Assembly (NCBI RefSeq): GCF_030116705.1
Contig: NZ_JAOTIK010000002.1
Span: forward strand, 186,001-250,000
Length of the DNA: 64,000 nt
Reading direction: 5' to 3'
From: Streptomyces sp. ML-6
GTDB taxonomy: Bacteria > Actinomycetota > Actinomycetes > Streptomycetales > Streptomycetaceae
The notes beneath the pieces were generated by a model. It was not told the DNA's origin. It saw only the letters and a program-made list of their open reading frames with translations, and searched no databases. This document shows, in pieces, positions 111 through 44,145 of this stretch. Within the stretch, counting starts at the first letter, position 1; each line of letters begins with the position of its first letter. A program made the translations under genes and the position numbers.

Positions 111-1199
111 TCAGAGGTAACTGCACAGCGTTCCGCGGCGGCGCACGTCGAGCGTCGCGCAGTGGAACGAGCCGCCGAAGCTGTTGAAGTTGCGGAAGTT
201 GCACAGGATCGGGGTGAAGCCGAAGTTCTTGAGCACCTGGATCATCGGCTCGTCCTGGCGCTCGACGATCACCCGGTCCTCGTCCAGCATCAGGATGTTC
301 ATGTTGATCCACTTGCTGGTCATGTACAGCGGGTGGGTGTCGGGCAGGACCGGCCGGGGGGCGGGCCTGACGTCCCAGCCCCTGAAGAGGTCCGGCACCT
401 TCGGCACGCGCTCGGGGTTGACGAGGAGTTTCCCGGGGGCCATCGGCACCAGGGTCGCGTCGATGTGCATGGGGTGGGTGTCGTTGAACTCGAGTACGTG
501 GATGCGGTATTCGTCGCCGAGGTGGCGCCGCAGCCACTCGATGCCGAAGTCGTTGGTCACGTTGCTCTTCTGCGCGATGATGTCGCGTCCGCACCGGGTG
601 AAGTCCGCGGCGTCGAAGGTCGGTTCGAACTCGGTGACGACCAGGTGGGGGGAGCCGTCCGGGCGGGGGCGCTCGGTCCATTCCTGGTCGAACTGCTCGT
701 CCGTCAGCTCGGGCTTCGGGCCGGCGCTCCACCTGGCGCCGCCCCGGAAGTACTCCTTGAGCAGGGGGCGGTAGGCGAGCGATTCGTAGTAGCGCGAGCG
801 CCAGGCCATCGGGCACTCGATGATGTCGTCGCCGACCACCAGGAGCGCGTCGCGCGGCATCGCGGCGTACATGCCGCTGCTGGTCCAGTGCAGGGTGCTG
901 TAGGTCGTGCGCTGCGCGAGGGGTTCGGGCCGCCGCACGACCACGCCCTCCGCCCGGAGGATGTGCGCGAACTCCTCCAGCTCCCGGCGCGCGGCCTCGA
1001 CCCGCTCGGCGGGGAAGGGCCGGCCCGCCTGGCTGCGGAACGTCTCGTGCATGTCCTGCGGCAGCACCGGGGGCAGCGCCTCGTGCCACGGCGGGAAGCT
1101 GGCGTCGTCGACGATCCCGACGATGACCTCCTCCAGCGGGTCCCATTCGGTGTACGAACACACGGGCCCGGCCGTAGCGGTGTCGTTGTGCCCAGTCAT
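111..1199 (-). CDS. Arginine:glycine amidinotransferase (AGAT-like)
   Basis: This 362-residue protein should move the amidino group of arginine onto glycine or another amine, giving guanidinoacetate or a guanidino product plus ornithine. Similarity to vertebrate GATM is obvious along the whole length: the N-terminal SYTEWDPLEEVIVG, the central MPRDALLVVG and APMAWRSR-like blocks, and the catalytic triad: Asp in FDAADF (residues 195-200), His245 in HPMHIDAT and Cys347 in GGSFHCATLDVRRRG. All key residues are present, so it should be active. The ATG overlaps the thioesterase stop (TGATG), which couples it to the NRPS-accessory operon. In cylindrospermopsin biosynthesis (CyrA) a related enzyme makes the guanidinoacetyl starter. 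Whether this one makes a free precursor or modifies a tailored amine cannot be read from sequence. Confidence 0.93.
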   Translation of the reverse strand: MTGHNDTATAGPVCSYTEWDPLEEVIVGIVDDASFPPWHEALPPVLPQDMHETFRSQAGRPFPAERVEAARRELEEFAHILRAEGVVVRRPEPLAQRTTYSTLHWTSSGMYAAMPRDALLVVGDDIIECPMAWRSRYYESLAYRPLLKEYFRGGARWSAGPKPELTDEQFDQEWTERPRPDGSPHLVVTEFEPTFDAADFTRCGRDIIAQKSNVTNDFGIEWLRRHLGDEYRIHVLEFNDTHPMHIDATLVPMAPGKLLVNPERVPKVPDLFRGWDVRPAPRPVLPDTHPLYMTSKWINMNILMLDEDRVIVERQDEPMIQVLKNFGFTPILCNFRNFNSFGGSFHCATLDVRRRGTLCSYL

Positions 1200-1966
1200 C
1201 ACATCTGCCTTTCGGTAGTACGGGACAGCCCTTCCGCGAGTTCCTGCCGCAGCACCCGGGGCGCGGCGAGGAACGAGTGGTGCGTCCCGGGGAGTTCGAC
1301 GTGCCGGAACTGTCCCGGCGCGGCGTACGGGGCCCAGCCGGCCATCTGCTGCGGCCGGATCTCCACGTCGTACCGCCAGCCGATCGACCGCACCCGGCTG
1401 GGCAGGACGACCGGTTCGTCGAGGCGGTAGAGCTGGTTGGCGGTGAGGTCGGCGCGCATCACCCGCAGGCTCAGCGCCAGGACGTCCGGGTGCGGTTCGC
1501 CTCCCATGACGCGGGTCTGGCGGGCGAGTTCGGCGGTCAGCTGCCGGTCGTTCATCGACAGGTAGCGTCCGTAGGGGCCCAGGTGCGGGGCGACCTGGGA
1601 GGAGACGAACACGCAGGCCGGGGCGGGGAGCCCGCTCCCGGCGATCGTCACCGCGGTGGCGAAGGCGGCCAGTGCGCTCCCGCAGTGGCCGAAGAAGCCG
1701 TAGGGGCGGTCCAGGTGGGGTTCCAGGCTGCCGACGAGTTGTTCGGCCAGTTCCTCGTAGGTGCCGAAGTGCGGTTCGCGCAGGCGGTTCTCCCGGCCGG
1801 GCGGTTGCAGCAGGCACACCTCGATGTCCGAGCCGCCGTCCGTGATCCGGCGCGGCCACCGGTTGAACATGGATGCGCCGAGTCCGGAGTACGGGAAGCA
1901 GAACAGCCGGGCCGTGCAGTCGTCGCGCACGGGCCGCAGGAAGGTCTTGTCGCGCGGGGCCCTCAC
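1199..1966 (-). CDS. Type II thioesterase with Cys nucleophile
   Basis: A 255-residue alpha/beta hydrolase of the GrsT/RifR type II thioesterase family, which hydrolyses acyl or aminoacyl groups from carrier proteins. Family landmarks are LFCFPYSGLGAS near residue 20, LQPPGRENR near 53, the nucleophile elbow FFGHCGSAL (residues 91-99) and the terminal GTHHSFL with the catalytic His. The elbow is GHCGS instead of the usual GHSMG: Cys95 replaces the Ser, and the last Gly of GxSxG is Ser. The GTG start at 1966 overlaps the P450 stop (GTGA), and the end overlaps the amidinotransferase ATG. It probably either releases the amino acid matured on the neighbouring A-PCP protein, as NikP2 does in nikkomycin synthesis, or edits stalled carriers. 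Confidence 0.88.
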   Translation of the reverse strand: MRAPRDKTFLRPVRDDCTARLFCFPYSGLGASMFNRWPRRITDGGSDIEVCLLQPPGRENRLREPHFGTYEELAEQLVGSLEPHLDRPYGFFGHCGSALAAFATAVTIAGSGLPAPACVFVSSQVAPHLGPYGRYLSMNDRQLTAELARQTRVMGGEPHPDVLALSLRVMRADLTANQLYRLDEPVVLPSRVRSIGWRYDVEIRPQQMAGWAPYAAPGQFRHVELPGTHHSFLAAPRVLRQELAEGLSRTTERQM

Positions 1967-3255
1967 ACGGTCACCGGTCCGTCCTCGGCCACCGCCGCCT
2001 CGATGGTGCGGCGCGCCCCCGGGGAGAGCCGGGCGCGCAGCGGCAGGCTCTTGATGCCGGCCACGAAGTTGGACGCCAGGTGTTCCACGGGGCCGGCGAG
2101 GGTGAAGCGTTCCACGGCGGGGACGAGCGTTCGGAACAGCGCGTCCAGCGCGATCCTCGCCAGGGGTGCGCCGATGCAGTAGTGCGGGCCGAAGCCGAAG
2201 GCCACGTGCCGGTTGGGGCTGCGGGTGAGGTCGAACCGGTAGGGGTCGGCGAAGATCTCCTCGTCGCGGTTGGCCGAGCCGAGCCAGGCCACCACCGCGT
2301 CGCCCTCCCGGATGTGCCGGCCGCGCAGGTGGGTGTCGCGGGTGGCGTGGCGCAGGAAGTGGTTGGCCGGGGACGACCAGCGCAGGCCCTCCTCGATCGC
2401 GGTGGAGGTCAGCGAGGGGTCGGCCCGCCAGCGGTCCCACTCCCGGGGGTGGTCGACGAGTGCGAGGACGGTGGCGGCGACGGCGTGCGGTGTGGTGACG
2501 TTCGCGCCGAGGAGCAGGCTGTAGCAGTTGTAGACGAGTTCGTCGTGGCGCAGCGGGCGCCCGTCCGCCTCCATGCCGAGCAGGAACCCCACCAGGTCGT
2601 CGCCCGGGTCGCGGCGGCGCCTGCGCACCAGGCCGGAGAAGTAGGCGAACAGTTCGTGGTGGGCGGCGGCCAGGGTGCCGTGTCCCTCGGAGTGCCGGTA
2701 GTCGGCGTCCTGCGGGGCGATGGCCGTGGTGGTCAGCCGGGTCAGCCGGTCCCAGTCCTCCTCCGGCAGGCCCATCAGCGTGCCGGTGAACGCCATCGGG
2801 AAGCGGGCGCCCGCCTCGGCCAGGTCCCACACCCCGCCGTCGAGCAGCGGTGCGAGCATGCGGTGCACCACGCGGCGGACCTGCGGGTTGTAGGGGCGCA
2901 GGGCCTGGTGGGAGAGCACCTTGGCCATCGGCTTGCGCAGCGCGGTGTGCACCGGCGGGTCGCTGGCAGCCATCATCCGGTTGCCCGCGGGGTCGGTGCC
3001 GCCCAGTACGGACAGCAGGGTGCCCCTGCTGGAGGTGAACCTGGTGTGGTCGCGCAGCACGGTGTTGACGTCGTGGTACCGGGTGACCGACCAGAAGGAG
3101 CGCCCGTCGGGGAGGGTGCTCAGGTGCACGGGGGTGTGGCGGCGCATCCGGGCCCAGAGGGGGTGGGGGTCGCCGGTGGCGTAGAAGTCGTGGTCCGACA
3201 GGTCGACCGCGCCGGGGCCGGGGCCGTCGTCGTGGGGCGGGGCGGTGATCCTCAC
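1963..3255 (-). CDS. Cytochrome P450 (candidate hydroxylase of a PCP-bound amino acid)
   Basis: A 430-residue soluble bacterial P450. The heme loop FGFGPHYCIGAPLARI and the ExxR helix (EEGLRW) are intact. The oxygen-activating I-helix reads LLLGANVTTPHAV, so the usual Asp/Glu before Thr is Val. The GTG start at 3255 overlaps the stop of the A-PCP gene (GTGA), so the two proteins are made together. An A-PCP didomain coupled to a P450 and a thioesterase is the standard arrangement for beta-hydroxylation of a carrier-bound amino acid (NovH/NovI, NikP1/NikQ). With the Val-like code of the A domain, a hydroxyvaline-type product is the first hypothesis. It could instead act on the finished compound. 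Confidence 0.9.
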   Translation of the reverse strand: MRITAPPHDDGPGPGAVDLSDHDFYATGDPHPLWARMRRHTPVHLSTLPDGRSFWSVTRYHDVNTVLRDHTRFTSSRGTLLSVLGGTDPAGNRMMAASDPPVHTALRKPMAKVLSHQALRPYNPQVRRVVHRMLAPLLDGGVWDLAEAGARFPMAFTGTLMGLPEEDWDRLTRLTTTAIAPQDADYRHSEGHGTLAAAHHELFAYFSGLVRRRRRDPGDDLVGFLLGMEADGRPLRHDELVYNCYSLLLGANVTTPHAVAATVLALVDHPREWDRWRADPSLTSTAIEEGLRWSSPANHFLRHATRDTHLRGRHIREGDAVVAWLGSANRDEEIFADPYRFDLTRSPNRHVAFGFGPHYCIGAPLARIALDALFRTLVPAVERFTLAGPVEHLASNFVAGIKSLPLRARLSPGARRTIEAAVAEDGPVTV

Positions 3256-4970
3256 CTGTGGTCCTCCCCCGCGGCGAGCATCTCGGCGAGTTCCGCGACG
3301 GTCGGGTGTTCGTAGAAGGCGACCGGGGCCACCGTGCGTCCGTACCGCTCGTCGATCTCGACGGTGATCCGGGTGGCCATCAGCGAATGTCCGCCCAGCT
3401 CGAAGAAGTCGTCGTCGACGCCCACTTCGTCGATCTGCAGCAGGTCGGCCCACAGTTCGGCGAGCCATCTCTCGTGCTCGTCGGCCGGGGCGCGGTAGTC
3501 GGTGCTCAGCTCCGGGCGGCCGGGCATGGTCGTCGCGGCGAGTTGGGCGCGGTCGGTCTTGCCGTTGCGGTTCAGCGGCAGCTCGTCGACGCGCAGGTAG
3601 ACCGCGGGGATCATGTAGCGCGGTACGAGTGCGGCCAGGTGGGTGCGGAGTTCGGCCGTGGTGAGCGTGCGCTCGGTGACGTAGAAGGCGGCGAGGATCC
3701 GTTCGCCGTGCGGCCGTTGGGCGACGACCGCGGCGTCGTCGATCTCCGGGTGGGTGCGCAGGGCCGCCTCTATCTCGTTCGGCTCGACCCGAAAGCCGCG
3801 GATCTTGAGCTGGAGGTCGGTGCGGCCGAGGAATTCCAGGGCCCCGTCGGGGCGGCGCCGGGCCAGGTCGCCGGTGCGGTGGAGCCGTCCGCCGGGAGTG
3901 GTGGCGAACGGGTCGGGGAGGAAGCGTGCCGCCGTCAGGGCCGGGTCGCCCTGGTATCCGTGGGCGAGTCCGGACCCGCCCGTGTACAGCTCTCCGGGCC
4001 GGCCCTCGGGCACCGGCAGCAGGTGCTCGTCGAGGAGGTGCACGGTGCTGCCGGTGAGGGGTACGCCGATGGGCACCGGGCCTTCGCCGACCGCCCCGGT
4101 GACCACGTGGCAGGTGGTGAACGTGGTGTTCTCGGTGGGGCCGTACCCGTTGACCAGTCTGATGTCGGGCAGTTCGCGCAGCGCCCGCTCGACATGGGCG
4201 GTGGAGAGCACGTCGCCGCCGGCGATCAGGTGCCGCAGTCCGCGCATGCCCCGCAGCCGGTGGGCGGTGACCACGGAGTGGAACAGCCCGGCGGTCAGCC
4301 ACAGGGTGGTGACGCCCTCCCGCCGGACCAGGTCCTCGATGCCGGCCGGGGAGGGGTCCTCGGGCGGGGCGACGACCAGGCGGGCGCCGTTGAGCAGCGG
4401 GCCCCACAGTTCGAGTGTCGACGCGTCGAAGGCCACGGGGGCCAGGAGCAGGAAAACGTCGTCGGGCCGTATCGGCAGCAGTTCCTGTTCCCGTACGAGG
4501 CGGATCACCGCGCGGTGCGGGACGCACACGCCTTTCGGGGCGCCGGTCGAGCCGGAGGTGTAGGCGAGGTACGCCGTGCTCTGGGGGCCGGATCCGGGCA
4601 GGGGCGCCGGGTCCGGGGCGGCGGTCGCGGCGGCCAGCAGTTCGGGCGTCACCACGAGTTGGGCTCCCGCGTCCTTGAGCACCAGTGCCCGGCGCTCCTC
4701 GGGCTGCTGCGGGTCCAGGGCGAGGTAGCAGCCGCCCGCCTTGAGCACGGCCAGCAGGGTCACCACCAGGTCGGCCGACCGCGGCAGGTCGACGGCCACC
4801 CGGGACTCGGGGACCACGCCGAGCTCGCGCAGGTGTCCGGCCAGGAGGCCGGCGCGCGCGTCCAGTTCGGCGTACGAGAGGGTGGCGTCGGGCGCGCTGA
4901 CCGCGACGGCATCGGGCCGGGCGGCCACTTGACGGGCGAACGCGGCGGTGATGGTGCTCGCGTGGTGCAT
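3252..4970 (-). CDS. Stand-alone NRPS adenylation-carrier didomain (A-PCP), valine-like code
   Basis: This 572-residue protein consists of an A domain (residues about 15-480) and a C-terminal PCP whose phosphopantetheine Ser529 lies in ELGGHSLMATR. Core motifs are YTSGSTGAPKG (A3), NGYGPTENT (A5), GELYTGG (A6), YRTGD-like HRTGDLARR (A7) and NRNGKTD (A10). The pocket residues read by eye from A4-A5 are D-A-L-W-I-G-G-T-F plus Lys, one change from the classical valine code DAFWIGGTFK, so L-valine or a close analogue is the likely substrate. There is no condensation domain, so the aminoacyl-PCP is a platform for modification by the co-transcribed P450. The ATG at 4970 starts exactly at the conserved N-terminal block. 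Confidence 0.93.
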   Translation of the reverse strand: MHHASTITAAFARQVAARPDAVAVSAPDATLSYAELDARAGLLAGHLRELGVVPESRVAVDLPRSADLVVTLLAVLKAGGCYLALDPQQPEERRALVLKDAGAQLVVTPELLAAATAAPDPAPLPGSGPQSTAYLAYTSGSTGAPKGVCVPHRAVIRLVREQELLPIRPDDVFLLLAPVAFDASTLELWGPLLNGARLVVAPPEDPSPAGIEDLVRREGVTTLWLTAGLFHSVVTAHRLRGMRGLRHLIAGGDVLSTAHVERALRELPDIRLVNGYGPTENTTFTTCHVVTGAVGEGPVPIGVPLTGSTVHLLDEHLLPVPEGRPGELYTGGSGLAHGYQGDPALTAARFLPDPFATTPGGRLHRTGDLARRRPDGALEFLGRTDLQLKIRGFRVEPNEIEAALRTHPEIDDAAVVAQRPHGERILAAFYVTERTLTTAELRTHLAALVPRYMIPAVYLRVDELPLNRNGKTDRAQLAATTMPGRPELSTDYRAPADEHERWLAELWADLLQIDEVGVDDDFFELGGHSLMATRITVEIDERYGRTVAPVAFYEHPTVAELAEMLAAGEDHR

Positions 4971-5015
4971 GCAGTCCTCCTCTGCTGGGTTCTCCGGCTT
5001 CGCCGGCCGGGCCGG

Positions 5016-5723
5016 TCAGTGGCTGTGCCGCAGCCCGTCGGGGACCGCCGTCCACACCGCGGCGGCGGTGGCGACGAGGTGACCGGACGCGGTGTGGACC
5101 GAGCTGCCGACGCTCACCGTGCGGCCGTGCGCGCCGAGCCGCTCGGCGACCACCACGTGGGGCGTGTCGGGCTCGATGCGGCCGGGGACGACGACCGAGA
5201 GCCTGCTGAGCACCTGCGGGGCCGGACGCCCGTCGACCCAGCCCCCGGGGCAGTCGAGCACGCACCACAACATGTCCGGGTCGTCGGTGCGCGGTGTCCA
5301 GGGGCAGGCCACGGTGTGCGGCCGGCCGGGTACGGCCCCGGGGGTCAGGTGCAGCCCGTCGGTGCGGCGGGGGCCGCAGGCGAAGCAGGTCGGGAACGGG
5401 TGCTCGGTGCGGCCGGGGAAGCGACGGGCCGCGATCCGCGCGGTGGTGAGGTCGACCGGAGGCACCGCCCACGGGGCCCGGCCCGCCGAGGAGACGGTGG
5501 CGACCAGGGTGTCGCCCGCGCGGACGGAGACACGTTTGCCGACGCCCTTCACCTCCATCGGGGTTTCCAGTGGTGGGGCGGCGAGCAGCGTCACGGCCAC
5601 TGGCGGCTCCAGACCGGAAGCGCGGGCGAAGACCGCGCACGCATACCCGCCATGGGCTGAGTGCGCAGGACCGTTGAAGGCGCGACCGATGGTCGCGCTC
5701 GCTGTTGCTTTTGCGCCTGCCAC
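5016..5723 (-). CDS. Hotdog-fold acyl thioesterase-like protein
   Basis: A 235-residue protein that starts the minus-strand operon, 45 bases upstream of the A-PCP gene. The N-terminal half has a hotdog-type segment (FNGPAHSAHGGYACAVFA, residues 16-33). A central CFACGPRRTDGLHL motif is typical of a poorly described double-hotdog thioesterase-like family. No nucleophile can be named with certainty. Its place beside a free carrier protein suggests hydrolysis or proofreading of carrier- or CoA-bound acyl groups, but this is inference. The start at 5723 is the first Met; no strong ribosome site decides between it and a slightly later start. Confidence 0.65.
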   Translation of the reverse strand: MAGAKATASATIGRAFNGPAHSAHGGYACAVFARASGLEPPVAVTLLAAPPLETPMEVKGVGKRVSVRAGDTLVATVSSAGRAPWAVPPVDLTTARIAARRFPGRTEHPFPTCFACGPRRTDGLHLTPGAVPGRPHTVACPWTPRTDDPDMLWCVLDCPGGWVDGRPAPQVLSRLSVVVPGRIEPDTPHVVVAERLGAHGRTVSVGSSVHTASGHLVATAAAVWTAVPDGLRHSH

Positions 5724-6030
5724 AAGAGGTCATGGTGTCCGGGGGCGTGCTCACCGAGGTGGCAGCCGCCGACGTCCCGGCCGGGCGATCGTCTCTGCTC
5801 AGGGCCGCTTCGGCAGGGGCGATACGGGAGTCCCACGGCGGACGGCGCCGAAGTGTCCACCGCACGCGCGGCCGGGTCGTCTCCCGTACCGAATCCACTG
5901 CCGTCCCACCGGACGGCCTTCTGGTCTCGGTCTCCGTCGCACGCGGGCGGTCCCCGGGCGGCCGGGAGGTGCCAGGCCGGCGGGCGACGATGGGGGCGGC
6001 CTGTGCGGAACGAGCGTGAGGGAGTCTGGA
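5724..6030. other. Divergent intergenic region
   Basis: About 300 bases lie between the minus-strand operon start (5723) and the plus-strand flavoprotein start (6031). It must hold the promoters of both transcripts. I see a GAGGGAG ribosome site at its right end (for 6031), but no convincing -35/-10 pair, palindrome or repeat. Confidence 0.4.
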
Positions 6031-7182
6031 ATGGACGTTCCATCCTCTGCCGGGGTGGTGATCGTCGGTGGCGGGATCATGGGCACCAGCGTCGCGTTCC
6101 ACCTGGCCGAGGCCGGCGTGCGCGACGTGGTGCTGGTCGAGCGGGACGAGCTGGGGTCGGGCTCCACGTGCAAGGCCGCCGGCGGGGTGCGCGCGCAGTT
6201 CTCCGACGCGCTCAACATCCGTCTCGGCGCCCGCGGTCTGGCCGCCTACCACCGCTTCGGCAGCCGGCCCGGACAGGACGTGGACCTGCGCACCCCGGGT
6301 TACCTGTTCCTGCTCTCGCGGCCGCAGGACGTGGAGTCCTTCGAGGCGGGCGTCGCCCTCCAGAACGAACTGGGCGTGCCGAGCAGGATGGTGGGGCCGG
6401 ACGAGGCCAAGCGGCTGTCTCCGCTGATCGAGACGGACGGGCTGCTGGCCGGGGCGTTCTCGCCGCAGGACGGGTACTGCACACCGGAGTCGGCCCTCCT
6501 CGGGTACGCCGTCGGGGCCAGGCGCCACGGCGCCACGCTGCTGACCGGTTGCGAGGTGCTCGGGATCGAGACCCGGGGCGGGGAGATCCGCGCCGTGCAC
6601 ACCACCGGCGGCCGGATCGGGACGTCGACGGTCGTCTGCGCGGCGGGCGCCTGGTCGTCCGCGGTGGGCGAGATGGTGGGCGTCCGCCTGCCGGTCACCC
6701 CGTACCGCAGGCAACTGGCGTTCACCGAGCCGGTCGCGCCCGGCGTGCCGGTGCCGATGACGCTCGACTTCTCCTCGGCCTTCTACTTCCGGCGCGAGGG
6801 CCGGGGCCTGATGTTCGGCATGTCCGATCCGAAGGAGCCGCCGGGCTTCCGGCTCGACCGCACGGACGAGTGGCTGTCCGAACTCGCGCAGAAGATGGCC
6901 ACGCGGGTGCCCGGCGTGCTCGGCACCGGTATCACCGGCGGGTGGGCGGGCCTGTACGAAGTCACCCCGGACCACAACGCCCTGATCGGAGAGGCCCCGG
7001 AGGTCGGCCGTTTCCTCTACACCACCGGGTTCTCCGGGCACGGCTTCATGCAGGCGCCGGCCGCCGGAGAGATCGTGCGCGATCTGGTGCTGGGCAGGGA
7101 GCCGTTCGTCGACGTCGGCCCCCTGGACGCGCGGCGGTTCGACGGCGCCGCACAGCTGCGGACGGAGAGCAACTATGTCTGA
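6031..7182 (+). CDS. FAD-dependent amino acid oxidase-like protein (DAO/sarcosine oxidase family)
   Basis: A 383-residue flavoprotein with the N-terminal dinucleotide site VVIVGGGIMGTSVAFHLAE (residues 9-27), the acidic residue ending the second strand (VLVERDE), and a C-terminal FAD-contact block (GLYEVTPDHNALIGE, then TTGFSGHGFMQAP). This is the DadA / glycine oxidase / sarcosine oxidase fold, which oxidises a C-N bond next to a carboxyl group to an imine. The start is fixed by GAGGGAG eight bases upstream of ATG. Its stop overlaps the start of a free PCP gene, which overlaps MbtH. The tight cassette suggests the substrate is an aminoacyl or peptidyl group on that PCP or the A-PCP protein. 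Oxidation of free glycine or guanidinoacetate is an alternative. Confidence 0.88.
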   Translation: MDVPSSAGVVIVGGGIMGTSVAFHLAEAGVRDVVLVERDELGSGSTCKAAGGVRAQFSDALNIRLGARGLAAYHRFGSRPGQDVDLRTPGYLFLLSRPQDVESFEAGVALQNELGVPSRMVGPDEAKRLSPLIETDGLLAGAFSPQDGYCTPESALLGYAVGARRHGATLLTGCEVLGIETRGGEIRAVHTTGGRIGTSTVVCAAGAWSSAVGEMVGVRLPVTPYRRQLAFTEPVAPGVPVPMTLDFSSAFYFRREGRGLMFGMSDPKEPPGFRLDRTDEWLSELAQKMATRVPGVLGTGITGGWAGLYEVTPDHNALIGEAPEVGRFLYTTGFSGHGFMQAPAAGEIVRDLVLGREPFVDVGPLDARRFDGAAQLRTESNYV

Positions 7183-7462
7183 CCGGGCAGGACCCGAGAA
7201 CCCCGGGAGCACGGCCGCCGCTCCCGCCGATCCCTCGGCGGTGATCGCCGGCTCCTGGCGCGCGGTGCTCGGCGTGCCGGCGCTCACCGAGGACGACGAT
7301 TTCTTCGAGCTCGGCGGCGACTCGATCATGGTGACCCGGATCGTGTCCTACCTGCGGCGCGAACTGGGGGTCGAGGTGGACATGGTGCAGGTGTGGGAGA
7401 CCCCGCTGTTCGGTGAGTTCCGGGACGCGGTGACGGCGCAGATGGGAGAGGGAACGACATGA
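7175..7462 (+). CDS. Free-standing peptidyl carrier protein
   Basis: A 95-residue carrier protein with a single PCP domain. The phosphopantetheine attachment motif DDFFELGGDSIMVTRIV (Ser in GGDS) is intact, followed by the typical helix 3 and helix 4 segments. It begins inside the end of the oxidase gene (8-base overlap) and ends inside the MbtH gene (ATGA), so all three are translationally coupled. A discrete PCP next to an NRPS that ends in a C domain without its own downstream A-PCP makes it a candidate acceptor-substrate carrier for that terminal C domain. Confidence 0.93.
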   Translation: MSDRAGPENPGSTAAAPADPSAVIAGSWRAVLGVPALTEDDDFFELGGDSIMVTRIVSYLRRELGVEVDMVQVWETPLFGEFRDAVTAQMGEGTT

Positions 7463-7695
7463 GCACGCACAACGGCACCGGTGACGAGGGTGACGGGAAC
7501 GAGACCCGCTACGGCGTCGTGATCAACGACGAGGAGCAGTACTCGATCTGGCCCGCGCACCGAGAGGTCCCGGCGGGCTGGCGGGAGACCGGAACGCAGG
7601 GGACCAAGCAGGAGTGTCTGGACCACATCGACGTGGTGTGGACGGACATGCGGCCCCGGAGCCTGCGGGAGCAGATGGCCGCACAGGAGGCGTAG
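7459..7695 (+). CDS. MbtH-like protein
   Basis: A 78-residue MbtH-family chaperone of adenylation domains. The signature NDEEQYSIWP, the WP/GW pair and the C-terminal DIVW-like segment HIDVVWTDMRPRSLR are present. MbtH proteins bind A domains and are needed for their solubility or activity. The likely partners are the A-PCP protein at 3252-4970, the NRPS at 9022-14976, or both. It starts on an ATGA overlap with the carrier gene. A strong inverted repeat follows 136 bases downstream. Confidence 0.96.
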   Translation: MSTHNGTGDEGDGNETRYGVVINDEEQYSIWPAHREVPAGWRETGTQGTKQECLDHIDVVWTDMRPRSLREQMAAQEA

Positions 7696-7874: not shown

Positions 7875-7881
7875 GGCTCTC

Positions 7882-18208: not shown

Positions 18209-18215
18209 AATGACC

Positions 18216-33500: not shown

Positions 33501-36500
33501 CGGTGCACGGGCCCGCCCTGATCGTCCACTCGGCGGGTTCGGTGGAACTGGCCGACGCACTGACCGCCCGTCACCAGGGGCCGGTGCACCGGATCGACGT
33601 GGCACAGCTCGCCCGCCCCGGTCTGGCCGATCGCCTGCGCGGGCTCGGGGAGCTGCGGCACGTGTGGTTCCTCGCCCTGTCGGCCGACGGCGGTGGGGGC
33701 GCGCGGGCGCTGTTCCGGCTGGTCCGCGGGCTCACCGAGGCGGATCTGATCCAGCGGGTGCGGTCCGTCCGCTCGGTCACCTCGGGCGCGCAGGACGTGG
33801 GGGGCAGGCGGGTCACCGACCCGGTCGCCGCCGAGCTGACCGGGATGAGCAAGGCCCTGGCCAAGGAGTATCCGCGGATCGGGGTGAGCTGCGTCGATCT
33901 CGCGGACCCGGTGGTGGACGCCGGGCAGGCCGCCGACGCGCTGCTGGCGGAGCCCGTTCACCGGAACAACAACCGGGACGTCGCTCTCCTGGGCGGCCAC
34001 CGGCTGGTCCGCGGGCTGCGTCCGGTCCACCTGCCGCCGCCCGCCCGGCCGGTGTTCCGTGAGGGCGGCAGTTATCTGGTCGTCGGTGGTGCGGGCGGCA
34101 TCGGTCTCGCTCTCGCGGATCATCTCGCCGAGAGCGTTTCCGCCCGGATCTTCCTCGTCGGACGCCGTCCGCGGGACGAACGGATCGACCGCGCGCTGGA
34201 CCGGCTGGGCCGGCTGGGCGGGCGGGCCACCTACCACCGGGCGGACGTCACCGACCCGGACGCGATGCGCGCGGTGGCGGCCGAGGCGCGCGCGCACGGT
34301 CCGCTGCACGGAGTCGTGCACGCGGCGATGGTGCTGCGCGACGGGATCGTGGAGCGGACGAGCGAGGAGGCGTTCCACGCCGTCCTCGCCCCCAAGACCG
34401 ACGGGATGCGCGTGCTCGGTGAGGTGTTCGCGGCCGATCCGCTGGACTTCCTGCTGGTGCTGTCCTCGGTGCAGTCGTTCACCGGTGCGGCGGGACAGGC
34501 CAACTACGCGGCGGCCTCCACCGCTCAGGACGCGTACGCGCACCGCCTCGCCGCCGAGTTGCCCTTCCCCGTGCAGTACGTCGGGTTCGGTCCGTGGGCG
34601 CGGGTCGGCCGGGTCGCCGACCGTCACGAGAGCCTCAGCGCCCGCGGGTACCGGCCGATCGAACCGCGGGAGGGCATCGACACGATCGAGCGCGTGCTGG
34701 CGAGCGGCGAGCGCGGCGTGGTGGCGCTGCGCGCCGACGAGGCGGTACTGACCGCGATCGGTGTCGAGCGCGGCCCGGTGGCCCCCGCGGCTCCCGGGGT
34801 CCCCGCCCATGACGGGGACCCCGCCGAGCGGAAGGCGCTGGACGCCTTCATCGGGGAAGTGCTGTGGCACGTCGTGGGGGGCCTCGGTCCGTTCGCCCGC
34901 CCCCACGAGCGGCATCCGGTCGAGGACCTGCCCGAGCTGCTCGGCGCGCTGCCCCGGTACCGGCGGCTGGTCAGGGCGCTGGTCCAGGTCCTGGTGCGCG
35001 GCGGCCACCTCGTGCAGGAGGGTGGGGCGGTGGCCGTCCCGGTGGCGGGGGCGCGGCCGGCGCCGCCCGACCCGGCGCCGCTGCGCGCCCGGTTCCCGGG
35101 CCTCGGTGCCCGGCTGGACCTGGTGGTGCGCTGTCTCGACGCCCTGCCCGAGGTGCTCACCGGTGCCCGGGAGGCCACCGAGGTGCTGTTCCCCGGCGGT
35201 TCCGCCGACCTGGTCACCGCGGTCTACCGGGGCGAGCCGCTGGTCGACTACTGCAACGCGCTGGTCGCCGGGCAGGTCGTCGCCCGGGCCGTCGACGGCC
35301 TGCGGGTGCTGGAGGTCGGCGCGGGGACCGGCAGTACGACCGAGGCCGTGCTGGCCGCGCTGGCCGGGGCCGGTGCGGCGGTCCGGTACGACGTCTCCGA
35401 CATCTCCCCCGGTCTGCTCCGGCAGGCCCGGGCCCGGCTGGAGCGGCCGGGCGTGCGCTTCAGGGTCCTGGACGTCGAACGCCCCGCCGACGCGCAGGGG
35501 TTCGCCGGGGAGCGGTACGACGTGGTGGTGGCGGGGAACGTGCTGCACGCCACGCGCGACCTGGACGCCGCGCTGGGCGAGCTGCGCCGGCTGGTCGCTC
35601 CGGGCGGGCGGCTGGTGCTGAGCGAGGTGACCGTCGTGCAGCCCTTCCACACCGTGACGTTCGGTCTGCTCGACGGCTGGTGGCGGTTCGACGACCCCCA
35701 TCGCAGGCTCCCCGGCTCGCCGTTGCTGGACCCGCACATGTGGCGCGAGCGCCTTGAGCGGGCGGGCTTCGGGGACGTGAGCGTCCTCGGTGCGCCCACC
35801 GCGCCGGGGGTCCTCCCGCAGCGGGTGATCGTCGGAACCGCCGACGACCGGCAGCCGGGGGCAGACGGTGAAGGGGTGCACCGGACCGCGCCCCCGGAAC
35901 CCGTGCCCACGGAACCCGTGCCTACGGAGCCCGCGCCCACCGGGGCCGTCACGGCCGGGTCCGCTCCCGCCGCCCCTCGTTCCGCCGGGCCGGTGGCATC
36001 CGTCGGGCGCGGCGGCGAGGAGGTCCGCGCGCTCGTCGCCGAGCGGGTGGCCGGGTGTCTGGGGCTGCCGGTCGGCAAGGTCCTGCCGGATTCCCCGCTG
36101 TCCGCCCTCGGCCTCGACTCGATCGTCGCCGTGGAGCTGACCAACCAGCTCAGCGACGCGCTCGGCGTCGTGCTGAAGACGATCGTGGTCTTCGAGCACC
36201 CGACGGTCGACGCGCTCGCGGCGCACATCGTCGAGCGGTACGGCGACGCCGTCGGTGTGGGGCCCGCCCCGCACCCCCCGGCCCTGTCCCCCTCACAGGA
36301 ACGGGAGCGGGCCGCCCTGCCGGACGCGGTGCCCTCCCCCGGCCCCGCGGTCGCGCGGGGTGCGGCCACGGGGTTCCGGGCCGTCCGGTTCGAACGGCCC
36401 GGAAGGCCGCAGGACCTGCGCATCGTGCCGATCGAGCCGGTGGCGCCCGGCCGGGGCGAGATCGAGGTCCAGGTCAGGGCGTTCCCGATCAACTTCTCGG

Positions 36501-37749: not shown

Positions 37750-38769
37750 ATGCCCGGCGAAATCGAACTGAGCCCCACCGACGACCTCATGGAGATGGTG
37801 GTCGCGGGCTGCACCGCGCAAGCCATCCACACCGCCGCGAAGCTCGGGATCGCGGACGTGCTCGCCGACGGTCCCAGGACCGCCGACGAGATCGCCGCCG
37901 AGGTCGAGGCGCACCCGGACGGCGTCTACCGTCTGCTGCGTGCCCTCACCACGCGGTCGATCTTCACCGAGCTGCCGGGCAGGCGGTTCGCCCTCACGCC
38001 GATGGCCGACGCGCTGCGCCGCGACGCGCCGAACTCGGTGCGTGCCCTGGTCCTGATGGCCGGCCATCCCATCACCTGGGAGACCTGGGGCCAGTTGGCC
38101 CACTCGGTCGTCACCGGTGAGCCGGCGTTCTGGAAGCTGCGCGGGATGCGGGTGTTCGAGTACCTGGCGCGCGACGAGGAGTACGCCGACCTGTTCAACC
38201 AGGCCATGACGTTCAGCTCCAACATCGAGATCCCCACGATTCTGGACGCGTACGACTTCAGCCGGTTCCACACGATCGTGGACGTCGGCGGGGGGCAGGG
38301 ACGGCTGCTGGCGGCGATCCTCCGGGCCACGCCCAAGGCCCGCGGGATGCTGCTGGACATCGAGTCGGTCACCGCGGGCGCACCGCGGGTACTGGCGGAG
38401 GAGGGGGTGGCCGATCGCTGCACCGTGCACAGCGGTTCCTTCTTCGACGCCGTCCCGGCCGGCGGGGACGCCTACGTGCTCAAGCACGTCCTGCACGACT
38501 GGCCGGAGGACAAGGCGGTGGAGATCCTGCGTTCGGTGCGGGCGTCCATCGGTGACAACGGTGAACTGCTGCTGGTGGCGCTGGTCCTGCCGGACGACGG
38601 CTCGCCGCACCTCGGCAAGGTCGTGGACCTGGATCTGCTGCTGGAGTTCGGCGGCCGGCACCGCACGCGGGAGGAGTACCGCCGGCTGCTGGCCGAGGCG
38701 GGGTTCGAACTGCGCCGCGTCGTGCCCACCGCGGGGGCCGCGTCGGTCGTGGAAGCCATTCCGGCCTGA
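37750..38769 (+). CDS. SAM-dependent O-methyltransferase
   Basis: A 339-residue small-molecule O-methyltransferase of the acetylserotonin/caffeate type. It has an N-terminal dimerisation winged helix (LGIADVLADGPRTADEIA), a SAM-binding glycine loop IVDVGGGQGRLLAAIL (about residue 180), and the general-base region LKHVLHDWPEDKAVEIL with the catalytic His. The start at 37750 is fixed by GAGGAG five bases upstream; a GTG six bases earlier overlaps that site. It lies 197 bases after the PKS and should methylate a hydroxyl of the polyketide or peptide product. Confidence 0.92.
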   Translation: MPGEIELSPTDDLMEMVVAGCTAQAIHTAAKLGIADVLADGPRTADEIAAEVEAHPDGVYRLLRALTTRSIFTELPGRRFALTPMADALRRDAPNSVRALVLMAGHPITWETWGQLAHSVVTGEPAFWKLRGMRVFEYLARDEEYADLFNQAMTFSSNIEIPTILDAYDFSRFHTIVDVGGGQGRLLAAILRATPKARGMLLDIESVTAGAPRVLAEEGVADRCTVHSGSFFDAVPAGGDAYVLKHVLHDWPEDKAVEILRSVRASIGDNGELLLVALVLPDDGSPHLGKVVDLDLLLEFGGRHRTREEYRRLLAEAGFELRRVVPTAGAASVVEAIPA

Positions 38770-38799: not shown

Positions 38800-40200
38800 A
38801 TGCCGATACTCCTCGTGGTCGGTGGAGTCACATTCGTCTACAGCACGCTCGAAGCGATGCTCGCACCCGCGCTGCCGCTCATCCGGGCGGGCGTCGGCGG
38901 CACGCCGTCCTCCATCGCGTGGGTGTTCACGGGACTGCTGTTGTCGGGGGCCGTGTGCACCCCGTTGATCGGCCGTCTCGGCGATCTCCACGACAAGAAG
39001 AAACTGTTCCTCGCCGTCCTCTCGATCGTCACGCTCGGCACCGCACTCGCCGGGCTGGCGACGAACGTGCCCGTGCTGGCGGTCGGCCAGATGATGCAGG
39101 GCGCGGGACTGGGGCTCACGCCGCTGTCGATCGGCCTGATGCGCGAGGCGCTGCCGGAGGACCGGGTCAAGAACGGCAACGCGATGATCATCGGGACGTC
39201 GTCGCTGGGGGTCCTGGCCGGCCCGCTGCTGGCCGGCCCGCTGACCTCCGTGCTGTCGTACCGCTGGCTCTTCTGGCTGCCGTTCTTCCTGCTGGTGGCC
39301 CTGATCGGGCTGGCCTTCGCGGTGCTTCCTGAGAGCCCGGCCACGGCCTTCGCCACGCCCCGCGGCCGGGTGGACTGGCTGGGCGCCGGGCTGCTGGGCG
39401 GCGGCCTGCTGACGTTGCTGCTGGGGCTGACGTTCGCCCCGACGTGGGGCTGGGCCTCCGGCGGGTTCCTCGCCACGGCCCTGGGGGCGGCGGTGCTCCT
39501 CACCGCGTTCGTCGTGACGCAGCGGCGGCTGGCGAGTCCGCTGATCGACCTGCGGGAGCGCGGGCGGACCGTCTTCGTCGTCTGTGCCGTCTCGTTCGCC
39601 GTCGGCTGGGCCGTCTTCGCCACCTACACCGCCCTCCCGACGATCACCTCGGCTCCTGCCACGACCGGTTACGGGCTCGCTCTCGACACCACCGTGACGG
39701 GCTGGATCCTGGTGCCCTCCGGTGTGCTCGCCGGCCTCAGCGCGTTCGCCGTCCGCCCGCTCGAACGCCTGGTGGGCACGAAGGCGCTCATGGTGGGCTC
39801 GTGCGTACCGATCCTGGCGGCGCCGGGCGTACTGCTGCTGGACCGGCCCTCGCTCGGGCTGCTCATCACCTCGTCGGCGCTGATGGGTCTGGGCATCGGG
39901 CTCGGGCTGACGCAGGCGATGAACATCGTCGTGACGTCCGTTCCGGCATCCAGGGCCGCGAGCCTGACCGGGCTGATGTTCGTCGTCCGGGCCGTCGGCG
40001 GGAGCCTCGGTGCCCAGATCGGCGGCAGCACCCTGGCCGGCGACGTGATCCCGTCGACCACGTTTCCGACGTGGTCCGCCTTCACGACGATGCTGACCGT
40101 CAGTGCGGTCGTCGGGCTGTTCGCCGTGCTCGTCGCCGCCGCTCTGCCCCGCGGCTCCGCCGCGGTGCCCGAACTCGCCGAAGTCCGGGCTTCGGTGTGA
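38800..40200 (+). CDS. MFS drug exporter
   Basis: A 466-residue major facilitator with 12-14 membrane segments visible as alternating hydrophobic blocks. It has the loop 2-3 motif A (GRLGDLHDKKKLF) and the antiporter region GTSSLGVLAGPLLAGPL characteristic of the drug:H+ antiporter (QacA/EmrB-like) group. It starts 30 bases after the methyltransferase in the same orientation and ends at a strong terminator, so it closes the plus-strand biosynthetic operon. It is the likely exporter of, and self-resistance to, the cluster product. Confidence 0.93.
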   Translation: MPILLVVGGVTFVYSTLEAMLAPALPLIRAGVGGTPSSIAWVFTGLLLSGAVCTPLIGRLGDLHDKKKLFLAVLSIVTLGTALAGLATNVPVLAVGQMMQGAGLGLTPLSIGLMREALPEDRVKNGNAMIIGTSSLGVLAGPLLAGPLTSVLSYRWLFWLPFFLLVALIGLAFAVLPESPATAFATPRGRVDWLGAGLLGGGLLTLLLGLTFAPTWGWASGGFLATALGAAVLLTAFVVTQRRLASPLIDLRERGRTVFVVCAVSFAVGWAVFATYTALPTITSAPATTGYGLALDTTVTGWILVPSGVLAGLSAFAVRPLERLVGTKALMVGSCVPILAAPGVLLLDRPSLGLLITSSALMGLGIGLGLTQAMNIVVTSVPASRAASLTGLMFVVRAVGGSLGAQIGGSTLAGDVIPSTTFPTWSAFTTMLTVSAVVGLFAVLVAAALPRGSAAVPELAEVRASV

Positions 40201-40206
40201 GCCACA

Positions 40207-42370: not shown

Positions 42371-43222
42371 TCACGCCGCTCGCCTGGCGACGCTCTCGCG
42401 CCGGGCCGCCACGGCCGAGCCTGACTCCCGTCGTGCCATCCGGCGCAGCACACCCGGGGCCACCAGGAAGCCCACGGCTCCCCACACCCCGAGCACGCCG
42501 GCCATCTCCAGGAACCGCCAGGACTCGCCGATCTCCGAGGCGGCCATGGCGTCCGGCAGGAACGCGGCCCGCAGTCCCAGGCCCAGCCAGTAGACCGGGA
42601 AGACCTGCGCGATCCACTCCACCCACCCGGGCAGCGAGGAAAGCGGGTAGAACACCCCGGAGAAGCCCACCAGCACCATGATCAGCACCATGATCGGGAC
42701 GAGTCCCTGGGTGCTGCGGAAGAGCGAGCCGAGGATCGCCCCGACGGGCAGGATCGCGAGCATGCCGAGCGCGAGCACCCAGGCCAGGGTCGCCCACGAC
42801 GACACCGCTCCCAGCCGCAGCCCGTCGAACAGGAACGCCACCGGGACCAGCAGGACGAGCAGGACCGCCACGGTGGTCCCGGCCTGCGCGAGCACCTTTC
42901 CCACGACGTAGCCGAGCATGCCGTTCGGGGTGGCCTTGGCGCGCAGCAGCGTGCCGTCCTCCCGGTCGGTGATCAAGGTGAACGCCAGCCCGATCAGGCC
43001 GGTGAACAGTGTGTTGATCCCGAGGATTCCGGGCACCGCGTGGGTGCCGAGGGAGAAGTCGGTGCCGCCCACCGTGGTGTCCCGCAGGAAGTACATCACC
43101 GCCAGCGCGAGGACCGGCCAGAACAGCCAGCCGACCAGCTGGCCCGCGTTGGTCACCGTCTGCCGGAACTCGATCCAGCCGCGGTGCAGCCCCGCGCGCA
43201 GCGCTACCACGCCTGGCTTCAT
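42371..43222 (-). CDS. ABC-2 type exporter permease
   Basis: A 283-residue integral membrane protein with six hydrophobic segments and the ABC-2 pattern (SSLPGWVEWIAQVFPVYWLG near residue 195). Its ATG overlaps the stop of the ATPase gene. With that ATPase it forms a DrrA/DrrB-like exporter. Together with the MFS protein this gives the cluster two export systems. Confidence 0.92.
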   Translation of the reverse strand: MKPGVVALRAGLHRGWIEFRQTVTNAGQLVGWLFWPVLALAVMYFLRDTTVGGTDFSLGTHAVPGILGINTLFTGLIGLAFTLITDREDGTLLRAKATPNGMLGYVVGKVLAQAGTTVAVLLVLLVPVAFLFDGLRLGAVSSWATLAWVLALGMLAILPVGAILGSLFRSTQGLVPIMVLIMVLVGFSGVFYPLSSLPGWVEWIAQVFPVYWLGLGLRAAFLPDAMAASEIGESWRFLEMAGVLGVWGAVGFLVAPGVLRRMARRESGSAVAARRESVARRAA

Positions 43223-44145
43223 GCCTCCTCCATCTCCCGCACCATGGCCAGGTAGACGTCCTCCAAGCTCGCCCGGCGCACTTCGAGGTCACCGACAGCG
43301 TCGCCGTGCCGCTCGAACAGCCCGCGCACGTACCGGGTCGCGTCCTTCACCGAATCCGCCCGGGGCTTGCCGTCGAGCGTGTACCGGACTTCGGTCCTGC
43401 TCCCCACCCGGTGCGCCAGCTCGGCCGCCGTGCCGTCGGCCCTGATCCGGCCGCCCGCCAGGATCACGATCCGGTCGGCCAGCTTTTCGGCCTCGCCCAG
43501 GTCGTGCGTGGTGAGCAGGATCGTCGTGTCCTCCAGGGCGGACAGCCGCTGTATCAGGGCGTGGAACTCCTGCCGGGCCTCCGGGTCGAAACCGGTGGTC
43601 GGCTCGTCGAGGAACAGCAGGTCCGGGTTGCCGATCAGGCCGACGGCCACGTCCAGCCTGCGCCGCTGCCCGCCGGACAGTGCGCCGACCCGGGCGTTCC
43701 TGTGCCCGGTCAGCCCGACCAGGCTGATCATCTCGTCCACGTCGTAGGGCCGTTGGCGCAGCGGCGTGCCGTACGGCGCGTAGTAGCGGCCGAGGTGGTC
43801 GAGGAGTTCACGGACCTTCCACCAGCTGTGGTCGCGCCATGACTGCAGCACGATTCCCAGCCGGGCACGCCATGCCTCGTCCCCGTCGTCCGGGTCGCTT
43901 CCCAGGACACGGACCTCACCGGCCGAGCGCTTGCGGAACCCTTCGAGGATTTCGATGGTGGTCGTCTTGCCCGCCCCGTTGGGTCCCAGCAGCGCGAGGA
44001 CCTCACCGCGGCGCGCGTGGAAATCCACGCCGCACAGCACGTCCTTCGAGCCGTAGCGCATGCGCAGCCCGCGGGTCTCGATGACCGGCCGCTCCTCGGC
44101 GCGCTCGGGCCCGGCGTCCGCGTCCGATGCCGTGGGCACCGCCAC
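43219..44145 (-). CDS. ABC exporter ATPase
   Basis: A 308-residue DrrA-type ATPase. It has Walker A LLGPNGAGKTTT, Q-loop, signature LSGGQRRRLDVA, Walker B LLFLDEPTTGFDP and H-loop LTTHDLGEAE, all intact, and a C-terminal extension of about 70 residues. GTG at 44145 is chosen because GGAGGA lies five bases upstream; a longer reading from 44241 adds a low-complexity, unconserved leader. It overlaps the permease start. It energises export of the product or resistance to it. Confidence 0.94.
   Translation of the reverse strand: MAVPTASDADAGPERAEERPVIETRGLRMRYGSKDVLCGVDFHARRGEVLALLGPNGAGKTTTIEILEGFRKRSAGEVRVLGSDPDDGDEAWRARLGIVLQSWRDHSWWKVRELLDHLGRYYAPYGTPLRQRPYDVDEMISLVGLTGHRNARVGALSGGQRRRLDVAVGLIGNPDLLFLDEPTTGFDPEARQEFHALIQRLSALEDTTILLTTHDLGEAEKLADRIVILAGGRIRADGTAAELAHRVGSRTEVRYTLDGKPRADSVKDATRYVRGLFERHGDAVGDLEVRRASLEDVYLAMVREMEEA

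What the first reader, a model, noticed from the sequence alone, without database searches (positions are those of the whole stretch)
111..44145. Hybrid NRPS / trans-AT PKS cluster with a GATM-like amidinotransferase: product not recognised
The cluster combines three trans-AT PKS modules, an AT-AT-ER protein, a C-A-PCP-E-C NRPS, a separate A-PCP/P450/TE sub-pathway, a flavin oxidase/PCP/MbtH cassette and an arginine:glycine amidinotransferase. Seen: all domains and the catalytic triad of the amidinotransferase. Known: guanidinoacetate is a PKS starter in cylindrospermopsin. Inference: a guanidino-bearing acyl-D-aminoacyl product, with a small polyketide part carrying an alpha-methyl group. I cannot match this gene set to a named compound.
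Basis: partly seen in the sequence, partly recalled or inferred. Interest (0 to 1): 0.85.

Follow-up and report, generated by a model that had tools for sequence, protein, structure and literature searches.

The report
Orphan cluster with spare leucyl-tRNA synthetase
A soil-bacterium gene cluster builds an unidentified peptide-polyketide, probably bearing a guanidine group, and just outside the stretch first read it carries a second, foreign-looking copy of the leucine-charging enzyme, which suggests that the product is an antibiotic aimed at that enzyme.

Summary
The window cuts the cluster: about 15 kb to the left lie a SARP regulator, aldo-keto reductase, 2OG oxygenase, radical SAM enzyme, C-A-PCP-reductase, Leu-code A-PCP, membrane di-iron oxygenase and a complete second leucyl-tRNA synthetase (LeuRS). 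Five clusters from other genera share the LeuRS slot, amidinotransferase, di-iron and 2OG oxygenases, flavin oxidase, Leu-code A-PCP and an NRPS with a similar unusual A code. This LeuRS is 39% identical to the genome's other copy. Best reading: an orphan LeuRS inhibitor with a guanidino amino acid made by a portable cassette, the second LeuRS being self-resistance, as AgnB2 is for agrocin 84. Against: the LeuRS lineage, altered active-site motif included, is the only LeuRS found in some other actinobacteria, so its sequence does not show resistance. The cassette also occurs without PKS, against a guanidinoacetate starter.

The parts
1..101 (-). g23, 5' end within the window (whole gene window -852..101): membrane FA-desaturase/hydroxylase-like di-iron enzyme, PF00487
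   Evidence: Pfam on the Actinophytocola orthologue, 73% identical; three His boxes kept in 7 of 7 compared
111..1199 (-). g24 AGAT-type amidinotransferase; expected to transfer the amidino group of Arg to an unknown amine
   Evidence: Solved relatives HsvA 5wpi, SxtG 6u1r, human AGAT 1jdw; triad kept in 7 of 7 and pocket residue Asn->His in 7 of 7
1199..1966 (-). g25 discrete thioesterase with a Cys in the nucleophile motif (GHCG)
   Evidence: PF00975; Cys in 4 of 4
1963..3255 (-). g26 cytochrome P450, probably acting on the aminoacyl-S-PCP of g27
   Evidence: PF00067; role inferred from A-PCP/P450/TE precedent (recalled)
3252..4970 (-). g27 A-PCP, code DALWIGGTF (Val-like)
   Evidence: Pfam; code; code table recalled
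5016..5600 (-). g28, present in the 4 trans-AT clusters, no family match
6055..7182 (+). g29 FAD-dependent amine oxidase (DAO fold); cassette member
   Evidence: PF01266; in all 6 LeuRS-bearing clusters and in CB03234
7241..7462 (+). g30 stand-alone PCP
   Evidence: PF00550
7459..7695 (+). g31 MbtH-like protein
   Evidence: PF03621
7882..8739 (-). g32 Fe/2OG oxygenase; C-terminal half like L-isoleucine dioxygenase HilA; cassette member
   Evidence: NF041274, 91 bits, below its cut-off of 500; H[DE]D...H motif in 7 of 7
9022..14976 (+). g33 NRPS C-A-PCP-E-C with unusual A code DAWHHGQGQ
   Evidence: Pfam; orthologues in 5 relatives, code similar, three C/E motifs in 6 of 6
14993..16495 (+). g34 beta-lactamase-fold serine hydrolase with SurE-like Ser-Lys/Tyr/His set; possible release or editing enzyme
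   Evidence: PF00144; motifs in 5 of 5
16505..18061 (+). g35 acyl-AMP ligase, probable PKS starter activation
   Evidence: PF00501; NCBIfam long-chain-acyl ligase-like
18210..21554 (+). g36 discrete AT-AT-ER (PfaD) protein
   Evidence: the eight nearest full-length other proteins are 60-82% identical
21551..37552 (+). g37 AT-less PKS: KS-KR-ACP / KS-DH-KR-ACP / KS-DH-KR-cMT-ACP-ADH(ER)
37750..38769 (+). g38 O-methyltransferase
   Evidence: PF00891; relatives in 2 of the followed clusters, NB11 65% and N. ninae 58%
38800..40200 (+). g39 MFS exporter
   Evidence: PF07690
40258..41151 (-). g40 luciferase-like monooxygenase
   Evidence: PF00296
41164..42345 (-). g41 cytochrome P450
   Evidence: PF00067
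42371..43222 (-). g42 ABC transporter permease
   Evidence: PF12698
43219..44145 (-). g43 ABC transporter ATPase; probable right end of the cluster
   Evidence: PF00005; DDE transposase at 45242-46447 follows

Best explanation
An orphan hybrid trans-AT PKS/NRPS cluster of about 59 kb (window -15100 to 44145) whose product most likely inhibits leucyl-tRNA synthetase. Proposed working. (1) The amidinotransferase g24 moves the amidino group of Arg onto an amine; the di-iron oxygenase g23, 2OG oxygenases g32 and g18, aldo-keto reductase g17 and flavin oxidase g29 finish a guanidino amino acid. (2) The g33 A domain, which has an unusual code kept across the family, loads that residue and the E domain inverts it. 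(3) The g35/g36/g37 line builds a short alpha-methylated acyl chain that is joined at the first C domain of g33. (4) Leu on the A-PCP g22 and a hydroxylated Val-like residue from g27/g26/g25 are added through stand-alone carriers. (5) The upstream C-A-PCP-reductase g20, with the radical SAM enzyme g19, adds a last residue and releases it reductively. (6) The extra LeuRS g21 keeps translation running while the product poisons the normal LeuRS. Shown: the genes, domains, motifs, synteny and second LeuRS. Inferred: substrates, order, product and target.
For: The LeuRS g21 (L003:14706-17201) scores 898 bits against a 548-bit cut-off for leuS_bact; its HMGH, MSKS, DSSWY and editing motifs are intact. 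The genome has another LeuRS in a 997-aa frame, 39% identical. In the window's genus (unnamed; Streptomyces by its nearest named relatives) a LeuRS this close to g21 (E<=1e-180) is rare: 4 of 391 other genomes, in two of them as a second copy. Of six relatives followed in detail, five (Actinophytocola, Saccharomonospora, Nocardia ninae, Micromonospora MW-13, Salinispora oceanensis) carry a LeuRS inside the cluster and another LeuRS elsewhere. In the window and these five it goes with an A-PCP of code DAWFLGHVV and the g33-type NRPS; the sixth, CB03234, has the cassette but lacks all three. Saccharomonospora fills the slot with a different LeuRS lineage (46-48% identity), as expected if the function is selected. 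Precedent: AgnB2, an extra LeuRS giving immunity to agrocin 84 (PMC5059758, abstract and passages).
Against: The LeuRS type is common in the class (197 of 394 genomes at E<=1e-180). Of 12 such genomes outside the genus that I checked, 11 have it as their one strong LeuRS match and G630 has two. The motif change that first looked like a resistance mark, GG[KR]EHATGH for GGV[ET]HAILH, is also in the LeuRS of family f18 (L125 from G654), where G654, G662 and G678 show one LeuRS each (genomes 85-95% complete). So it is a lineage mark and no evidence of resistance. The Saccharomonospora LeuRS and the 65% copy in G335 lack it. Copies of the same clade sit away from any amidinotransferase relative in the stretches read from G181 and G778. 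The 46%-type copy is the only strong LeuRS match in G057 and G309, so there it seems to have replaced the usual one. The relatives were chosen through g24, and the other loci were seen only within 10 kb of it. A codes rest on a template and table recalled from memory. No compound, activity or inhibition is known.
Confidence: 0.55

Rival explanations
1. The amidinotransferase is an ornithine supplier: it turns Arg into Orn for the assembly line and the guanidino by-product is not in the molecule.
For: This is how AGAT-like genes in the gobichelin, ulleungmycin and noursamycin/curacomycin clusters are read (PMC7459860, passages). Several g24 relatives sit beside NRPS genes.
Against: None of the four NRPS A domains that gave a code (g20, g22, g27, g33) has an acidic residue at the positions expected for Orn (expectation recalled). 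The gene occurs with two oxygenase genes at 27 of 71 loci, and 17 of these 27 show no NRPS- or PKS-like match in the DNA fetched.
Confidence: 0.15
2. The extra LeuRS is a biosynthetic enzyme: it makes leucyl-tRNA as donor for a tRNA-dependent ligation.
For: tRNA synthetases in some clusters serve synthesis (valanimycin VlmL; recalled). A Leu-loading A-PCP is also present.
Against: No GNAT, FemABX or cyclodipeptide-synthase-like family matched among the window cluster genes scanned. The synthetic and editing motifs are complete, and Leu already seems to be activated by g22.
Confidence: 0.1
3. The extra LeuRS is a passenger, or a spare copy for general use, with no link to the product.
For: LeuRS genes of the same clade occur in other genomes of the genus without this cluster nearby, the type is common in the class, and its motif change is a lineage feature. 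A foreign LeuRS can even replace the usual one (G057, G309).
Against: It sits in the cluster in six genera although gene order and backbone genes vary, and one cluster has another LeuRS lineage in the slot.
Confidence: 0.17
4. Guanidinoacetate made by g24 is loaded by g35 as PKS starter, as in cylindrospermopsin.
For: An acyl-AMP ligase lies before the AT and PKS genes and g24 is AGAT-like.
Against: No g35 or g37 orthologue was found with the cassette in the stretches read from Micromonospora, Salinispora and CB03234, nor a g35 orthologue among the genes called in the N. ninae PKS cluster. The pocket Asn of AGAT is His in 7 of 7.
Confidence: 0.06

Closest known systems
Agrocin 84 / AgnB2 self-immunity LeuRS
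   Same: A second LeuRS encoded with an antibiotic pathway. AgnB2 lacks the leucine-specific insertion, and g21 aligns to AgnB2 (5ah5) in one piece but to Thermus (1h3n) and E. coli (4aq7 group) LeuRS in two.
   Different: Agrocin 84 is a leucyl-adenylate analogue; this is a PKS/NRPS product. AgnB2 has KQSKS; g21 has AMSKS, like most ordinary LeuRS of related lineages. The short form is also usual in those lineages (about 830 aa), not special to g21.
Mupirocin-type trans-AT clusters with a resistant synthetase
   Same: trans-AT PKS with an AT-AT-ER protein and a second synthetase of the target family (mupirocin facts recalled, not tested).
   Different: Target there is IleRS; no such cassette and no peptide part like this (recalled).
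Ketomemicin (ktm)
   Same: An amidinotransferase (KtmE) is in the pathway and one product has a guanidine on an N-terminal Val (PMC11943689, passages).
   Different: Six-gene ATP-grasp pathway independent of NRPS; no LeuRS among the six genes named.
Phaseolotoxin cluster (amtA with desaturase genes phtH/desI)
   Same: Amidinotransferase together with fatty-acid-desaturase-like genes (PMC3927611, passages).
   Different: AmtA uses Lys and gives homoarginine and Orn; no PKS/NRPS is named in those passages. AmtA was not compared by sequence here.
SxtG, HsvA and human AGAT (and CyrA, recalled)
   Same: Same enzyme family and triad; HsvA 414, SxtG 406, AGAT 394 bits.
   Different: Different pocket (Asn->His, Ser->Thr against human AGAT) and different partner genes; the inosamine-phosphate enzyme 1bwd is further off (229 bits).
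SurE-type cyclase systems (surugamide, desotamides)
   Same: Beta-lactamase-fold stand-alone hydrolase beside an NRPS with an E domain (PMC7459860 passages).
   Different: g33 ends in a C domain, not E, and an upstream module ends in a reductase here and in what looks like a TE in Saccharomonospora.

Membership tests
trans-AT PKS | KS modules without in-line acyltransferase | tested here: met
   no Acyl_transf match in 10 overlapping pieces of g37
trans-AT PKS | discrete acyltransferase in the cluster | tested here: met
   g36 AT-AT-ER
trans-AT PKS | KS domains fall in trans-AT clades | not tested
   no reference KS set or transATor here
AGAT-type amidinotransferase | Asp/His/Cys catalytic triad and full-length homology | tested here: met
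AGAT-type amidinotransferase | glycine as acceptor | tested here: inconclusive
   Met and one Ser of the pocket kept, Asn->His and Ser->Thr (pocket roles recalled)
self-resistance by second target copy (AgnB2 principle) | second complete copy of the target enzyme in the cluster, another copy elsewhere in the genome | tested here: met
self-resistance by second target copy (AgnB2 principle) | catalytic motifs kept, with changes that set the cluster copy apart from ordinary LeuRS | tested here: inconclusive
   motifs kept; the GG[KR]EHATGH change is shared with the apparently only LeuRS of family f18
self-resistance by second target copy (AgnB2 principle) | product inhibits the ordinary copy and not the cluster copy | not testable with these tools
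   needs compound and enzyme assay
ornithine-supplying amidinotransferase | assembly line has an Orn-loading A domain | tested here: not met
   codes DVMFFTIIY, DAWFLGHVV, DALWIGGTF, DAWHHGQGQ; interpretation from a recalled code table
SurE-type cyclised peptide | last NRPS module ends in E | tested here: not met
   g33 ends in C
SurE-type cyclised peptide | Ser-Lys/Tyr/His hydrolase | tested here: met
   motifs in 5 of 5
ketomemicin cluster | aldolase, PLP C-acyltransferase and ATP-grasp ligase genes | tested here: not met
   no such Pfam match among the window cluster genes scanned

The most novel reading that the evidence does not exclude
A family of nonribosomal LeuRS inhibitors spread over at least six actinomycete genera. 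Its shared active part (a Leu unit plus a D-configured guanidino amino acid made by the amidinotransferase/di-iron/2OG/flavin-oxidase cassette) is grafted onto different backbones, trans-AT polyketide in some and peptidic in others. The cassette alone makes an exported guanidino amino acid in CB03234, Photorhabdus and Xenorhabdus.
Probability: 0.32. Interest if true: 0.85.

Novelty: new variant of a known kind. Interest (0 to 1): 0.66.

Why it matters
LeuRS is a proven drug target: tavaborole and GSK3036656 act on it (PMC7916415, 12 of 31 places seen). In those passages agrocin 84 is the one natural LeuRS inhibitor named; I recall granaticin as another. This cluster gives a concrete, testable target for an orphan assembly line and a search handle (second LeuRS plus cassette) for a whole family. 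The cassette itself (amidinotransferase, membrane di-iron oxygenase, 2OG oxygenase), found in Streptomyces, Photorhabdus, Xenorhabdus and others, probably makes a guanidino amino acid that I could not match to a known one.

Tried and rejected
Guanidinoacetate as PKS starter: given low weight because the cassette occurs without PKS. Ornithine supply: kept as a rival. LeuRS as a lineage duplicate: rejected, since it is 39% identical to the genome's other LeuRS. LeuRS as a gene special to this cluster: rejected, since the type is common elsewhere. Active-site change as a resistance mark: put forward, then dropped after searches showed the same motif in the apparently only LeuRS of family f18. SurE cyclisation as the main release: not filed, because g33 ends in C. 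Class-wide co-occurrence count: g24 at E<=1e-150 was found in 1 of 394 genomes, the window's own, so no contingency test was possible. Rfam and tRNA scans of the window found nothing. PDB search with the di-iron oxygenase gave no match. PF02274 found another gene in the genome, not g24. First gene calling on N. ninae failed and was repeated with a lower GC3 threshold. Structure prediction was not used.

Paper searches whose listings showed no match to this cluster: no papers; 3; 2; 16 listed of 17; 11 of 12; 25 of 31; 'leucyl-tRNA synthetase' in none of the 25; 13. Only open-access PMC text is held there.

Full report
WHAT IS THERE. The window is C2:186001-250000 of a 9.13-Mb, five-contig genome. 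Gene calls are from my own codon-usage script, named g1-g60 over C2:150001-250000; window position = L003 position minus 20000. In g37 (residues): KS 10-505, KR 1120-1295, ACP 1384-1449; KS from about 1521, DH 2133-2372, KR 2590-2765, ACP 2881-2946; KS from 3013, DH 3713-3963, KR 4173-4349, methyltransferase 4587-4688, ACP 4829-4893, zinc-ADH/ER 4967-5264. The KS active-site Cys and HGTGT are present in all three. g32 has no Pfam match; it resembles the C-terminal half of the isoleucine dioxygenase HilA and has an H[DE]D...H iron motif.

WHAT THE WINDOW CUTS OFF. To the left lie (L003 coordinates) SARP regulator g16 (4900-6690), aldo-keto reductase g17 (6733-7716), 2OG oxygenase g18 (7713-8456), KamA-like radical SAM enzyme g19 (8944-10059), C-A-PCP-reductase g20 (10056-14468), LeuRS g21 (14706-17201), A-PCP g22 (17322-19151) and FA-desaturase-like g23 (19148 to window 101). 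g16-g18 and a C-A-PCP module stand in the same order in Saccharomonospora, so they belong. Beyond g16 lie what looks by eye like a broken tyrosine recombinase (g14/g15) and an APH-like kinase. On the right a DDE transposase (45242-46447) follows.

RELATIVES. A scan with g24 gave 71 loci. Of these, 38 hold a g23-type gene, 27 hold both g23 and g32 types, and g23 lies within 200 bp of g24 in 26 of 38. Only up to 10 kb on each side was seen. Within that, of the 27, one has a PKS-like match, nine an NRPS-like match and 17 neither. I followed six of the 71 in depth: Actinophytocola xinjiangensis, Saccharomonospora NB11, Nocardia ninae, Micromonospora MW-13, Salinispora oceanensis and Streptomyces CB03234. 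The first three share the trans-AT PKS with the window; MW-13 and S. oceanensis have other NRPS genes. Present in the window and the first five: LeuRS, g22, g23, g24, g29, g32, g33. Not universal: g17 and g18 were not found in the Actinophytocola stretch, g18 not in MW-13; g25-g28, g30 and g34-g38 are confined to subsets. CB03234 has g16-g18, g23, g24, g29 and g32 but only one LeuRS and no g22 or g33. Beside its cassette stand an EamA exporter and genes like cystathionine beta-synthase, dihydroxy-acid dehydratase, an acetolactate-synthase-like enzyme and an amino acid dehydrogenase. MW-13 and N. ninae share a LeuA/B/C/D-like set with an aminotransferase. In Photorhabdus L031 and Xenorhabdus L041 the g24 and g23 types stand near an EamA exporter. 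I read this as a portable cassette for a guanidino amino acid; that reading is inference.

ADENYLATION CODES. With a recalled PheA template: g22 DAWFLGHVV in 6 of 6 clusters (Leu-like); g27 DALWIGGTF or DALWLGG-- in 4 of 4 (Val-like); g33 DAWHHGQGQ in three, DAWHHGQ--, DVWHHGQ-- and DVWHIGQIQ in one each (no known code that I recall); g20 DVMFFTIIY against DLVSFACVI in Saccharomonospora, where the module ends in what looks like a thioesterase instead of a reductase (by eye).

THE LEURS. The genome has one other full LeuRS, in a 997-aa frame; identity is 39%. In a draw of 392 genomes of the genus, 4 besides this one hold a match at E<=1e-180. None of the four shows a g24 relative among the genes called in a 40-kb stretch around it. 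In G181 and G335 the gene is a second copy; in G057 and G309 (the 46% type) it is the only strong LeuRS match. In the class, 197 of 394 genomes hold the type. Of 12 such genomes outside the genus that I checked, 11 have one strong LeuRS match and G630 has two, so it is an ordinary enzyme there.

On the tree (56 rows, quick IQ-TREE) the cluster copies of the window, Actinophytocola, MW-13, S. oceanensis and N. ninae fall in a 38-row set (SH-aLRT 100). For most rows of this set I do not know whether they are second copies; one, L125 of family f18, comes from a genome (G654) with a single LeuRS match. The other 13 of 14 class genomes that I fetched for this comparison fall outside the set. Saccharomonospora NB11 falls with the 46% copies of G057 and G309. 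The motif around the active-site His pair reads GG[KR]EH in 37 of 38 rows of the set and ..TGH in 35 of 38, L125 included. Of 14 rows outside it (13 class genomes and P0209) 1 has K and none has TG. I had first taken this change for a resistance mark; since L125 shares it, it marks a lineage. The HMGH, MSKS, editing and DSSWY motifs are intact, so the enzyme should work.

MECHANISM AND RIVALS. The best account is still self-resistance to a LeuRS inhibitor, after AgnB2. It now rests on position and recurrence, not on sequence marks: LeuRS, the Leu-code A-PCP and g33 are present together in six clusters and absent together in CB03234, and one cluster has another LeuRS lineage in the slot. It does not say what part of the product binds LeuRS. 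Ornithine supply, a biosynthetic LeuRS, a passenger LeuRS and a guanidinoacetate starter are set out under rivals. The KtmE case suggests that an amidinotransferase can put a guanidine on an alpha-amine, so the acceptor here could be an amino acid other than glycine; His for Asn in the pocket of 7 of 7 fits a changed acceptor. After I lowered the main reading from 0.6 to 0.55, raised the passenger rival from 0.13 to 0.17, and lowered the novel case from 0.35 to 0.32 and the interest from 0.68 to 0.66.

PAPERS. Seen: PMC5059758 (abstract, outline, passages), PMC7916415, PMC11943689, PMC7459860, PMC13185094 and PMC3927611 (passages only); all others as search listings. Statements on mupirocin, valanimycin, cylindrospermopsin, granaticin and A codes are recalled.

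VERDICT. A real, conserved, apparently uncharacterised cluster; observation right, boundary wrong, interpretation half right. The new element is the second LeuRS and, with it, a target hypothesis that an enzyme assay can decide.

Noticed in passing
L031:9977-13737 and L041:8748-13145: Photorhabdus and Xenorhabdus carry amidinotransferase and di-iron oxygenase genes (with the 2OG oxygenase in L041) near an EamA exporter; X. hominickii shows three places with 70% matches on three contigs. Probably an exported guanidino amino acid.
   Followed up: partly
L106:8443-14182 and L137:13263-19281: Second LeuRS of the same clade in two other genomes of the genus (G181, G778), with no amidinotransferase relative in the stretch read, and with the same two neighbours (80-83% alike): another LeuRS-linked locus.
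   Followed up: partly
L110:17907-20000 to L111:1-372 and L112:18220-20000 to L113:1-685: G057 and G309 seem to have replaced the usual LeuRS of their genus by a 46%-type LeuRS: it is the only strong match to the editing domain in each.
   Followed up: partly
window 1199-1966: Discrete thioesterase with Cys in place of the nucleophile Ser (GHCG), kept in 4 of 4.
   Followed up: no
L082:10614-12719: Saccharomonospora has a 701-aa protein with ThiF and nitroreductase matches directly after the PKS gene.
   Followed up: no
L116:8942-14379: LeuA/B/C/D-like genes and an aminotransferase near the Micromonospora cluster, with relatives in N. ninae; LeuA-like and LeuB-like score below their cut-offs. 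Leu supply or chain elongation.
   Followed up: partly
L114/L115 (G004:C13:212977-227253): CB03234 cassette without NRPS in the stretch read, with dihydroxy-acid dehydratase, cystathionine beta-synthase, acetolactate-synthase-like and amino acid dehydrogenase genes.
   Followed up: partly
window 45242-47555: DDE_5 transposase and a DUF7691 gene right of the cluster; a broken tyrosine-recombinase-like gene (by eye) lies left of it at about -17760..-16790: possible mobile island.
   Followed up: no
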